DNA of 64,000 nucleotides from Anaerolineae bacterium (lineage in GTDB: Bacteria > Chloroflexota > Anaerolineae > Aggregatilineales > Aggregatilineaceae), in contig JAHDWP010000006.1 of assembly GCA_023382715.1 (NCBI GenBank), positions 1 to 64,000 on the forward strand, in the 5' to 3' direction. Below the pieces are notes generated by a model, which had not been told where the DNA came from, made no database searches, and was given only the letters and a program-made list of their open reading frames with translations. This document shows positions 12,473-16,619 of this stretch, one piece after another (within the stretch, counting starts at the first letter, position 1; every line of letters starts with the position of its first letter). The translations under genes were made by a program, and so were the position numbers.

Positions 12473-13513
12473 CTAGGGTCTGTTGGCCGCCGTCATCCTG
12501 CCAGAGCGCCCGTTCTTCACCGCGATGATCTCGGCCATGATGCTCAGCGCGATCTCTTCCGCCGACTTGCCGCCCAGGTCCAGCCCCACCGGCGTGTGAA
12601 TGGGGGGGAGCTGCGCCAGGTCCAGCCCGGCGGCCTGGGCGCGCTCGGCGCGCTCGGTGGCGCGCTGCGGCTTGCCAATGGCTCCCAGATAGGCGAGCGG
12701 GTGCCCGGCCAGCGCGCGCAGCATGGCGTCCTCAAAGCGCGGCTCGTGGTTGAGCGAGACGGCATACGTCCGCCGGTTCACGCCGACACGCGCCACGACT
12801 TCTTCCGGCCAGAGGGCCAGCACTTCGTCCGCGTCGGGGTGCTTTGCGCGGGTGGCGAAGGCCGGGCGCGCGTCCGTCACCACCGTGCGCAAGCCCATCA
12901 GCCGGGCGAAACGCACCAGCGGCACGGCCACATGATCGCCGCCGAAGATGAGCAGCGTGGGCGGCGGCAGCACCGGCTCCAGCAGGGCGATGCGCCCTTC
13001 CGCGTAAGCAGCGGTCTGCGGCAGGTCGGACTCCAGCGCGGCCAGCGCGTCGCGCAGCACCGGCTCTGGCAGAGGGACGGAGGCGGTGCCATCCGGCAGG
13101 ACGTGGGCATGAGCAGGGCGCGGATGCAGCGGCTCGTTGGGCGTGCACAGGGTGACGAGAGTGCGCGTCGGCGGCGCGCTGAGCAGGTCGAACAGGGGGC
13201 GATCCAGCCGTTCGACCAGCACATCAATCTGCCCGTCGCAGTTCAGCCCGATCTCGACCAGCGAATTCTCCACGCGCTTGTAGTGCAGCATCAGCGGGCC
13301 GTCGCCGTCCAGCACGGCACAGGCGGCTTCGTACACGTCGGTTTCCACGCAGCCGCCGCTGACCGCCCCGACGAAACGGTTATCGCCGGTCATGATCATA
13401 CGCGCACCGAGCGGTTGCGCCGACGATCCGCGAATGCGCACGATGGTCGCCAGGGCGACCGCTTCGCCGGCGTCTAGCCAGGCGGCTGCTTGCTGGGTGA
13501 GGTCGTTGTCCAT
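12473..13513 (-). CDS. XdhC/CoxI family protein
   Basis: A 346-residue protein of the family that matures molybdenum hydroxylases by handling or sulfurating the cofactor. The N-terminal XdhC_CoxI domain shows ATIVRIRGSSAQPLGARM and AVSGGCVETDV with the conserved Cys. The C-terminal Rossmann-like domain includes LLIFGGDHVAVPLVRFA, AVSLNHEPRFEDAML, YLGAIGKPQRA, IHTPVGLDLGGKSAEEIA and IMAEIIAVKNGR. No hydroxylase subunits occur in the window. The start at ATG 13513 has no clear ribosome binding site. Confidence 0.9.
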   Translation of the reverse strand: MDNDLTQQAAAWLDAGEAVALATIVRIRGSSAQPLGARMIMTGDNRFVGAVSGGCVETDVYEAACAVLDGDGPLMLHYKRVENSLVEIGLNCDGQIDVLVERLDRPLFDLLSAPPTRTLVTLCTPNEPLHPRPAHAHVLPDGTASVPLPEPVLRDALAALESDLPQTAAYAEGRIALLEPVLPPPTLLIFGGDHVAVPLVRFARLMGLRTVVTDARPAFATRAKHPDADEVLALWPEEVVARVGVNRRTYAVSLNHEPRFEDAMLRALAGHPLAYLGAIGKPQRATERAERAQAAGLDLAQLPPIHTPVGLDLGGKSAEEIALSIMAEIIAVKNGRSGRMTAANRP

Positions 13514-13712: not shown

Positions 13713-16619
13713 TCATTGCTCCAGGTTAAATTGCACGCGCTCGCTCGCCGTCAGATCGCGGACGCGGCAGCAGGCGTTGGCATAAGCGACCAGATCGGCG
13801 GTCGTCTGCCAGGCCATCCAGATGCGCGCGCTGCGATCGCTGCTGGCGGTGACGCTGTGCGTCCCGTCCGGCGACCAGGCGACGCCGCGCAGACCGTCGC
13901 CATGCCCGCCCAGCACCAGCAGCTCGTTGCCGGTTGTCGCGTCCCACAGGCGCGCCGTGCGATCCTCGCTGGCGGTGAGGATGCGCGATCCATCCGGCGA
14001 CCAGGCCCCCGCGGTGACGGCATCGGTGTGCCCGGCCAGCGTCACCCGCAGCGCGCCCGTCGCCGCGTCCCAGACTTTCGCTGTGCCGTCCTCGCCGACG
14101 GTCAGCAGGGCCGCCCCGTCCGGCGAAGAGAAGACGCCCGTCACCGCGCCGTCGTGCGCCGCCAGCACCATGATCTCGCCGCCCGTCGCCGCATCCCACA
14201 GGCGCACGGTGCCGTCGCGCGCGGCGGTGATCAGGCGTGCCCCGTCCGCTGCCCAGGCCGCGAACTCGACTGTGCCGGTGTGCCCGCTCAGCAACAGCAC
14301 CTCTTCCGGCACGGCGCCGCTGATGTTCCACAGGCGGGCCGAGCGGCGCGCAGCGATGAGCAGATGCGTCTCGTCCGGCGACCAGGCGGCGCTGGTGATG
14401 TCGGTGACCAGGTCGGTCACGGCCAACACCTGCGCCCCGCTCGCCGCATCCCAGACGCGCGCCTGGCTGTCGCTCGCCCAGGTGAGCACGCGCGTCCCGC
14501 TGGCGTTCCAGCGCGCGCCGTTAACCCGCCCCTGGTGCGTCAGGGTGAACAGGAGCGCGCCGCTCTGCGCGTCCCACAGGCGCGCGGTGTTGTCCCACGA
14601 CCAGGTGAGCAGGCGCGTCTCGTCAGGACTCCACGCCGCGCCGCTGACCCAGCCGCTGTGCCCGCTCAGCGTCAGCAGGAGCGCGCCGCTCTGTGCGTCC
14701 CACAGGCGCGCCGTGCCGTCGCGCGACCAGGTGAGGACGCGCGCTCCGTTCGCGCTCCACGCCGCGCCGTTGACCCAGTCCCCATGAGGCAGTGTGTGCA
14801 GCGCCGCGCCGGGCGAGGCATCCCACAGGCGGGCAGTTGCGTCAGCGGCGGCGGTGAGCAGGCGCGCACCGTCCGGCGCCCAGGCGACATCGTTCACATC
14901 GTCGGCGTGCCCGCTGACAGCATACAGGCGCTCGCCGCTGGCGGCGTCCCACACGTAGACCGCGCGGTCGCGCCCGGCGGTGGCCACCCGCGTTCCGTCC
15001 GGCGACCAGGCCACCGCCATCACCGCGCTGATGTGCCCGGTCAGCACAGCGATCGGCGCGCCCGCCGTCGGATCCCAGACGATGGCTGTCTCATCGTTGC
15101 TCGCGCTGGCCAGGCGCGTCCCATCCGGCGACCAGGCCACGCGGTTGATGGCGTCGCTGTGCCCTTCCAGCACGGCCAGCGCCTCGCCGCTGGCGGCATC
15201 CCACAGGCGCACGGCTCCGTCGTGGCTCCCGCTGGCGATCTGCGTCCCGTCCGGCGACCAGGCGATGCCATTGACCCAGGCCGTGTGCCCGCTCAGGATG
15301 CGCAGCAGCGCGCCGCTGGCCGCGTCCCATACGCGCACGGAGTTGTCGGCGCTGGCGGTGGCGATCTGCGCCCCATCCGGCGACCAGGCGACGTCAATCA
15401 CCCAGTCGGTGTGCCCCACCAGCACGAGCAGCGGGTTGCCGGTCGCGGCGTCCCAGACGCGGGCCGTGCGATCCCAACTGCCTGTGGCGAGGCGCGCCCC
15501 GTCCGGCGACCAGGCGACGCTGGAGACGGACCCCGTGTGCCCGACCAGCCGCCTGATGGGCTGCGGACTGCTCGCCGCTTCCCACAGGGCGACGCTGTTA
15601 TCGGCGCTGGCGGTGGCGATCTGCGCCCCGTCCGGCGACCAGGCCGCGCGCAGCACCGCCCCGTTGTGCGCCGTCAGGATGCGCCGCGCCCGGCTGGCCT
15701 GCACCGCCGTGCCCAGCGCGCGGTCGGCCTGCCACACATACGGCAGCCGGTTCAGCGCTTCGAGGGCCAGCAGCACGCCGCGCTCTGGAAAGGCCCCGAA
15801 CAGCTCAAGCTGAGCCTGCGCGGCCAGGCCGATGGCCTGCGACCTGTTGCGCGCTTCCTCGGCGGACAGGCGAGCCTGAACGGCTGCCTCAGCGTTGGCG
15901 CTGGCCTGCTGGCGGGCGTCCTCGGCGCGCACGAACAGGATCAGCGAGAGCACCAGCAGGGCGACGATCACGCTGACCACGGCGGTGATGATGGCGTTGC
16001 GCTGCTGGCGGCGCTTGTGGACGTGGCGGCTGCGCGCGATGTACTCGATGTGCAGGGGGGTGGGTTTGTTGCGCTCTTTGGCCAGGCCCTGGGTCAGCCA
16101 CGCCTCGGCTTCCTTCAGGTCGTTGCCGCCCAGCAGCAGGCTGCGATCGTGCTGGCGATCTTCCCAGTTGCGGGCGCGCACCAGCAGACGGGTGTGCTCG
16201 CGCGTGTAGGCCAGGTCGGTGTCCAGCGCGTCGAGCAGTGCGCCAAAAGCCGTGTCGAAGTCGTCTTCATCGCGGATGAAGATCCAGTTATGGGCGTTGA
16301 CTGTGGGATGCAGCCGCTTCTCGTCGGCCTCGTCGGTGATCTCGCGGCGCAGCACCGGCATGATGCGCTTGTGGTGCTCGGTGGCGTAGTCAATTTCCTT
16401 GAAGCAGGTCACCGAGCGCGCCGAATCCGGGCTGATGGCGAAGACGAAGGCGTTGGCCCCTTCGATGCCGCTGCAAATCTCGCGCCACCAGTCCGCCGAG
16501 AGGGGGATGTCTTCCCAGTCCACCCAGGCGTCGCGTCCGTGCGCAGCCAACGCCTGGTGCAGCCGGCGCACGAACGCCCTATCCTCGCGTGCGTAGGAAA
16601 TGAACACGTCGCCCGGCAT
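13713..16619 (-). CDS. TIR domain - membrane segment - WD40 repeat protein
   Basis: A 968-residue protein. Residues 3-135 are a TIR domain (DVFISYAREDRAFVRRLHQAL, here DVFISYAREDRAF; WVDWEDIPL; FVFAISPDSARS). CFKE at 72-75 matches the position of the catalytic Glu of TIR NADases. A linker (RNWEDRQHDRSLLLGGNDL, AEAWL) leads to one membrane helix at 209-230, a coiled-coil-like helix, then about 15 WD40 units from residue 315 to 945, enough for two propellers. No NTPase (NACHT/STAND) domain is present. ATG 16619 has AAGGAGG upstream; earlier codons are intergenic. Membership of the TIR-WD40 conflict and signalling class is known; an antiviral role here is inference. Confidence 0.88.
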   Translation of the reverse strand: MPGDVFISYAREDRAFVRRLHQALAAHGRDAWVDWEDIPLSADWWREICSGIEGANAFVFAISPDSARSVTCFKEIDYATEHHKRIMPVLRREITDEADEKRLHPTVNAHNWIFIRDEDDFDTAFGALLDALDTDLAYTREHTRLLVRARNWEDRQHDRSLLLGGNDLKEAEAWLTQGLAKERNKPTPLHIEYIARSRHVHKRRQQRNAIITAVVSVIVALLVLSLILFVRAEDARQQASANAEAAVQARLSAEEARNRSQAIGLAAQAQLELFGAFPERGVLLALEALNRLPYVWQADRALGTAVQASRARRILTAHNGAVLRAAWSPDGAQIATASADNSVALWEAASSPQPIRRLVGHTGSVSSVAWSPDGARLATGSWDRTARVWDAATGNPLLVLVGHTDWVIDVAWSPDGAQIATASADNSVRVWDAASGALLRILSGHTAWVNGIAWSPDGTQIASGSHDGAVRLWDAASGEALAVLEGHSDAINRVAWSPDGTRLASASNDETAIVWDPTAGAPIAVLTGHISAVMAVAWSPDGTRVATAGRDRAVYVWDAASGERLYAVSGHADDVNDVAWAPDGARLLTAAADATARLWDASPGAALHTLPHGDWVNGAAWSANGARVLTWSRDGTARLWDAQSGALLLTLSGHSGWVSGAAWSPDETRLLTWSWDNTARLWDAQSGALLFTLTHQGRVNGARWNASGTRVLTWASDSQARVWDAASGAQVLAVTDLVTDITSAAWSPDETHLLIAARRSARLWNISGAVPEEVLLLSGHTGTVEFAAWAADGARLITAARDGTVRLWDAATGGEIMVLAAHDGAVTGVFSSPDGAALLTVGEDGTAKVWDAATGALRVTLAGHTDAVTAGAWSPDGSRILTASEDRTARLWDATTGNELLVLGGHGDGLRGVAWSPDGTHSVTASSDRSARIWMAWQTTADLVAYANACCRVRDLTASERVQFNLEQ

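What the first reader, a model, noticed from the sequence alone, without database searches (positions are those of the whole stretch)
13713..16619. TIR - membrane helix - 15 WD40 repeat protein without an NTPase domain
An apparently active-type TIR domain (CFKE glutamate) is joined to a membrane helix and a double WD40 propeller. Many immune STAND proteins place an NTPase between effector and sensor; here it is missing and a membrane anchor takes its place. The gene stands alone. This could be a membrane-bound NAD-depleting sensor or a signalling protein.
Basis: partly seen in the sequence, partly recalled or inferred. Interest (0 to 1): 0.75.

Follow-up and report, generated by a model that had tools for sequence, protein, structure and literature searches.

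The report
Membrane-spanning TIR–WD40 receptor-like protein
This bacterial gene encodes a protein with an NAD-cutting-type TIR domain predicted to sit inside the cell, one membrane helix, and a large WD40 sensor predicted to sit outside; it belongs to an untested family built on the same frame as STAND immune receptors and laid out somewhat like an animal Toll-like receptor.

Summary
In detail: a 968-aa protein at 13713-16619 (-) has a TIR domain (5-129), one membrane helix (~209-230), 15 WD40 repeats and no NTPase. The reading that a membrane anchor "takes the NTPase's place" is wrong. NTPase-bearing (nSTAND1) WD40 proteins of related genomes carry the same linker and membrane helix (20 of 20). 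Of 30 loci with this linker, 23 have a TIR head, 6 an nSTAND1 head, 1 both. So this is one receptor frame with a TIR head instead of an NTPase head. The family occurs in Chloroflexota and Cyanobacteria. Glutamate E75 is invariant in 45 of 45 members; the Trp of WxxxE is absent in all, predicting NAD hydrolysis rather than cyclisation, if active. Positive charge before the helix (42/48) and even cysteine counts after it (36/42) predict TIR inside and WD40 outside, like a Toll-like receptor. In its genus the gene lies beside xdhC in all five genomes, under purifying selection. It is not in a defence island, but one related clade has a conserved operon with SLATT and TPR-S genes, a conflict-system context. 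NADase activity, topology and phage defence are untested.

The parts
13713..16619 (-). Whole gene: TIR - linker - TM - helical segment - 15 WD40 - C-tail, 968 aa
   Evidence: start codon shared with 91% identical congener
16233..16607 (-). TIR domain, residues 5-129
   Evidence: PF13676 E 1.3e-26; fold match Z ~18 to TIR structures
16395..16397 (-). E75, predicted catalytic glutamate (S-x-x-C-x-x-E)
   Evidence: invariant in 45/45 relatives; aligns with the AbTir glutamate (E208 per PMC11374754)
16017..16214 (-). Linker 136-201, shared with nSTAND1-WD40 proteins
   Evidence: linker-only HMM hits 20/20 nSTAND1 proteins, E 4e-14 to 8e-3, next background 0.87
15996..16019 (-). Basic patch HKRRQQRN before the helix (positive-inside signal)
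   Evidence: more K/R before than after the helix in 42/48 relatives
15930..15995 (-). Transmembrane helix, ~209-230
   Evidence: only strong hydrophobic stretch; TM-like in 48 relatives
15693..15929 (-). Juxtamembrane long helix and helical hairpin, 231-309
   Evidence: models; helix HMM also hits most nSTAND1 proteins
13809..15683 (-). 15 WD40 repeats (double propeller), residues 313-937
   Evidence: best PDB fold match 2ymu, Apaf-1 also among the top hits
13716..13808 (-). C-tail 938-968 (LVAYANACCRVRDLTASERVQF), Cys-containing, resembling the tail of the TIR-nSTAND1-WD40 relative

Best explanation
A single-pass membrane receptor. The N-terminal TIR is in the cytoplasm and the 15-repeat WD40 double propeller is on the outer face of the membrane. 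Binding of an unknown ligand by the propellers, or clustering, is passed through the membrane helix and the conserved helical linker and brings TIR domains together. The assembled TIRs then cleave NAD+, most likely to ADP-ribose and nicotinamide rather than to a cyclic product, giving growth arrest or death, or a nucleotide signal. Shown here: domain order, family, homology of linker/TM/helical segment to nSTAND1-WD40 receptors, invariant E75, purifying selection, stable genomic place. Inferred: topology, clustering as trigger, NADase activity, defence role.
For: TIR fold closest to SARM1 TIR, SPARTA TIR-APAZ and metazoan TRR-2 TIR; by profile the best PDB sequence match is the CRISPR TIR Cat1. 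E75, S8 and D34 invariant in 45/45; equivalent AbTir residues are needed for NADase activity (PMC11374754). WxxxE Trp absent in 45/45; in AbTir that Trp is needed for the cyclic product. Topology: basic patch before the helix in 42/48 TIR members and 20/20 nSTAND1 relatives; post-helix Cys count even in 36/42 complete members, with a frequent Cys pair in the tail, as expected for disulfides outside the cytoplasm. Shared frame. Selection: dN/dS 0.08 in TIR, 0.23-0.26 in WD40, 15 repeats kept. Conflict context in one clade: operon with SLATT_1 and TPR-S; SLATT 2TM proteins recur with TIR effectors in predicted conflict systems (PMC7159879).
Against: No activity data. TLR1 and TLR6 TIRs also keep the Glu (alignments) and act as adaptors (general knowledge). 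The Trp of WxxxE is absent and the AbTir V193 and R215 residues are not kept. Neighbours outside one clade are ordinary genes with no excess of PADLOC hits. No relatives found in phage records or by pattern scan in viral contigs. The even-Cys statistic is not corrected for relatedness, and in the window protein the two tail Cys are adjacent (C950, C951). Overall Cys content is equally low on both sides of the helix.
Confidence: 0.5

Rival explanations
1. Same receptor, but a house-keeping, envelope or social signalling role rather than anti-phage defence: a stable ligand is sensed outside and the TIR gives a modest NAD-derived signal.
For: Gene beside xdhC in 5/5 congeners; purifying selection and fixed repeat number, no sign of an arms race in the sensor; ordinary, varied neighbours.
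Against: SLATT_1 and TPR-S operon in one related clade; patchy family, absent from most sampled phylum genomes; bacterial TIR enzymes with known roles mostly act in immunity or virulence (general knowledge).
Confidence: 0.3
2. The TIR is a non-enzymatic adaptor or scaffold that only clusters partners, as in animal TLRs.
For: The Glu is also kept in TLR TIRs; WxxxE Trp missing in 45/45; the top fold match is a Toll-related receptor TIR.
Against: No conserved partner gene in its genus except xdhC; S8, D34 and E75 all invariant.
Confidence: 0.2
3. The helix is only an anchor and the WD40 domain faces the cytoplasm, sensing intracellular phage or stress products.
For: Classical STAND-WD40 sensors such as Apaf-1 are intracellular (general knowledge); Apaf-1 is among the top fold matches.
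Against: One strong hydrophobic helix only, clear positive-inside signal and even Cys counts.
Confidence: 0.15
4. A decayed STAND protein that has lost its NTPase and its function.
For: A TIR-nSTAND1-TM-WD40 relative exists.
Against: Open frame, dN/dS 0.08-0.26, kept in 5/5 congeners, some 45 relatives with the same short architecture.
Confidence: 0.02

Closest known systems
nSTAND1 (PF20703)-TM-WD40 proteins
   Same: Linker, TM, positive-inside patch, helical segment and WD40 sensor; the TIR-nSTAND1 relative also has a similar C-tail
   Different: No NTPase; the TIR sits directly on the linker, so no NTP-driven oligomerisation
Animal Toll-like receptors
   Same: Single-pass, predicted sensor outside, TIR inside
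   Different: Opposite order along the chain (TIR is N-terminal), WD40 instead of LRR, TIR expected to be an enzyme; an analogy of layout, no descent shown
Bacterial TIR NADases (AbTir, TcpC, SPARTA TIR-APAZ, Cat1)
   Same: Fold, catalytic Glu, Ser and Asp equivalents
   Different: Membrane-spanning, WD40 sensor, no Trp at WxxxE in any of 45 members
TEP1/NWD (DUF4062-STAND-WD40) and APAF-1 (CARD-STAND-WD40)
   Same: Effector or adaptor at one end, WD40 at the other (PMC13174449)
   Different: Those have a STAND NTPase between; a membrane helix is not mentioned there
Soluble TIR-WD40 protein of the same genome (L149:4841-6235)
   Same: TIR plus WD40, no NTPase
   Different: 465 aa, no such linker and no TM

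Membership tests
TIR domain (PF13676 TIR_2) | Profile match above curated cut-off and TIR fold | tested here: met
   93.9 bits against a cut-off of 28; structure Z ~18
TIR NADases | Catalytic Glu in alpha-C | tested here: met
   E75 invariant 45/45, aligned with the AbTir Glu
TIR NADases | WxxxE Trp (linked to the cyclic product) | tested here: not met
   Position 71 is T here, mainly V/I/T/Y in relatives, no Trp in 45; TcpC does not need it for NADase activity
TIR NADases | NAD+ cleavage | not testable with these tools
   Needs an assay
STAND NTPase / NLR-like proteins | STAND NTPase domain between effector and sensor | tested here: not met
   No NTPase family on residues 1-313 at E<=1; TIR (to 129) abuts the linker (from 136)
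nSTAND1-TM-WD40 frame (linker to WD40) | Homologous linker + TM + helical segment | tested here: met
   Linker-only, TM-only and helix-only HMMs each hit nSTAND1 proteins
Toll-like receptor layout | Sensor outside, single TM, TIR inside | tested here: inconclusive
   Predicted by charge and Cys parity only
Thoeris (ThsB) | ThsB family model above cut-off | tested here: not met
   PF08937 18.9 bits, below cut-off 21.2; immediate neighbours are xdhC, L9, a glycosyltransferase, a methyltransferase and a band-7 protein
Known anti-phage system in PADLOC | Full-length match to a system protein | tested here: not met
   Only TIR-part matches, best E 6e-9
Defence island gene | Enrichment of defence genes nearby | tested here: not met
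   PADLOC family hits: 5 among 64 near proteins, 9 among 60 far ones; exception: one clade with a SLATT_1/TPR-S operon, which was left out of that count

The most novel reading that the evidence does not exclude
A widespread class of bacterial receptors with Toll-like layout: an outside WD40 sensor signalling through one helix to an inside TIR NAD hydrolase, on a frame whose head can be swapped between a TIR and an nSTAND1 NTPase; that is, bacterial TIR receptors that sense something outside the cell.
Probability: 0.4. Interest if true: 0.8.

Novelty: new variant of a known kind. Interest (0 to 1): 0.55.

Why it matters
Bacterial TIR effectors studied so far are, to my knowledge, intracellular. 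If the predicted layout is right, bacteria have membrane receptors that couple an outside signal to NAD cleavage, and the same frame carries either a TIR or an NTPase head. That would allow direct tests of how sensor and effector parts of immune receptors are exchanged, and of whether STAND oligomerisation can be replaced by clustering in a membrane.

Tried and rejected
(1) Membrane anchor in place of the NTPase: rejected, NTPase-bearing kin have the same helix. (2) Defence-island location: not found for the family at large. (3) Mobile gene: no relatives in phage records or by pattern scan in viral contigs, four weaker ones in plasmids; stable place in the genus. (4) Arms race in the sensor: dN/dS at or below 0.31 in every part, repeat number fixed. 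(5) Cys depletion as a topology test: not informative, content equal on both sides of the helix; parity used instead, chosen after seeing the counts, so it deserves an independent repeat. (6) Promoter/terminator scan: no promoter-like site between 13400 and 17100, two weak terminator-like ones. (8) Literature: searches found no description of this architecture, but most subscription papers are not held, so the absence is weak. (9) Wrong coordinates, repeated or dropped. (10) The VIA structure comparison covered residues 1-136 only; the linker fold was not searched alone.

Full report
Observation. Pfam gives TIR_2 at residues 5-129 (E 1.3e-26) and WD40 families for the rest. There are 15 repeat-ending tryptophans and one strong hydrophobic helix, about 209-230. 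AlphaFold2 on a 45-member family alignment gives a confident TIR plus helical linker (mean pLDDT 91.5). The full-length model (mean pLDDT 83) is confident in the TIR and the propellers and poor in the membrane stretch (below 50 at 207-234). No NTPase is present.

Family. Homologues of the N-terminal 313 residues were found in genus, family, order and phylum, and in Cyanobacteria. In the phylum sample 27 of 400 genomes have a match, some to the TIR part only. Members are typically about 1000 aa, and almost all carry a hydrophobic helix at the same place. In an alignment of 45, twelve positions are invariant: S8, Y9, R11, W32, D34, I38, S69, C72, E75, K84 in the TIR, W152 and S197 in the linker.

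The linker tells what the frame is. A profile of residues 136-250 hits 20 of 20 nSTAND1-WD40 proteins from related genomes, just after their NTPase. Split into linker only, TM only and helical segment only, most still hit; linker only gives E 4e-14 to 8e-3 with the next background at 0.87. A linker search over 81 genomes of the order finds matches in 62. Of the 30 loci returned, 23 have a TIR head, 6 an nSTAND1 head, and one both. That one (L148) has a partial TIR, nSTAND1, linker, TM and WD40 in a 1780-aa frame, with the start of its TIR in another frame just upstream; its C-tail resembles that of the window protein. So the protein is the nSTAND1 receptor frame with a TIR in place of the NTPase; the membrane helix belongs to the frame. 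Which way the exchange went was not tested.

TIR pocket. Mapping by the alignment to AbTir and the AbTir/TcpC mutation table of PMC11374754: S140, D167 and E208 correspond to S8, D34 and E75, all invariant here; R151 corresponds to R18, the consensus residue but not invariant. W204 corresponds to T71, and no member has Trp there; V193 and R215 are not kept. In AbTir that Trp is needed for the cyclic product; in TcpC it is not needed for NADase activity. Prediction: hydrolase rather than cyclase, if active. TLR TIRs keep the same Glu, so the Glu alone proves nothing.

Topology. A basic patch precedes the helix (HKRRQQRN). There is more K/R before than after the helix in 42 of 48 TIR members with a TM-like helix and in 20 of 20 nSTAND1 relatives. 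Cysteine counts after the helix are even in 36 of 42 complete members (binomial P 1.4e-6, not corrected for relatedness), with a frequent Cys pair in the tail. Both point to TIR inside and WD40 outside. Total Cys content does not discriminate. This is prediction, not proof.

Context and selection. In all five genomes of the genus the gene, or the part not lost at a contig end, lies next to xdhC. Between window and congeners dN/dS is 0.08 for the TIR and 0.23-0.26 for WD40; the repeats align without loss or gain, apart from one 13-residue loop insertion in one congener. GC3 is like that of the neighbours. For the family at large, immediate neighbours are ordinary genes and PADLOC hits are not more frequent near than far. 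The exception is a clade of the same class: C39/SH3 - TIR-TM-WD40 - SLATT_1 - TPR-S, with the C39/SH3 gene in nine, SLATT_1 in nine and TPR-S in eight of ten loci (some contigs end), closely spaced. PMC7159879 reports SLATT 2TM proteins together with TIR effectors in predicted conflict systems. TPR-S was identified by Pfam only; no paper on it was found.

Own genome. Seven TIR matches. By eye on the translations: a soluble TIR-WD40 (L149), a TIR with TPR-like repeats (L150), a TIR with HEAT-like repeats (L151), and smaller ones, two ending in a hydrophobic stretch. So a TIR joined to repeats without an NTPase is usual in this genome.

Verdict. Real, correctly described, partly misread. A new variant of a known kind: a TIR effector on the nSTAND1-type membrane-spanning WD40 frame. 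The step from anatomy to function (NAD cleavage, outside sensing, defence) is inference. Interest 0.55.

Noticed in passing
L088, L089, L090, L091, L093, L094, L096, L097, L100, L112: Conserved operon in one Chloroflexota family: C39/SH3 protein, TIR-TM-WD40, SLATT_1, TPR-S protein, closely spaced or overlapping, followed by a conserved ~156-aa gene on the other strand. May be an undescribed conflict system.
   Followed up: partly
L148:1782-7124: TIR-nSTAND1-TM-WD40 relative whose TIR is split between two frames; real decay or assembly error not resolved.
   Followed up: partly
L149:4841-6235, L150:5407-7104, L151:7133-8617: The same genome has further NTPase-less TIR-repeat proteins: TIR-WD40 without TM, TIR-TPR-like, TIR-HEAT-like.
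   Followed up: partly
L203 / L204 (G000:C76:4433-4822): Single SLATT_1 domain in the window's own genome, on another contig than the TIR-WD40 gene; role not known. Part of L204 reads N.
   Followed up: no
window 12473-13513: xdhC-like gene next to the TIR gene in all five congeners; a functional link is unknown.
   Followed up: partly
window 13767-13772 (C950, C951): Two adjacent cysteines in the tail, where many relatives have a spaced Cys pair.
   Followed up: no
NZ_CP063798.1 and NZ_CP083584.1 (cyanobacterial plasmids): TIR-plus-linker relatives (38-49% identity) on plasmids of Tolypothrix and Kovacikia.
   Followed up: no
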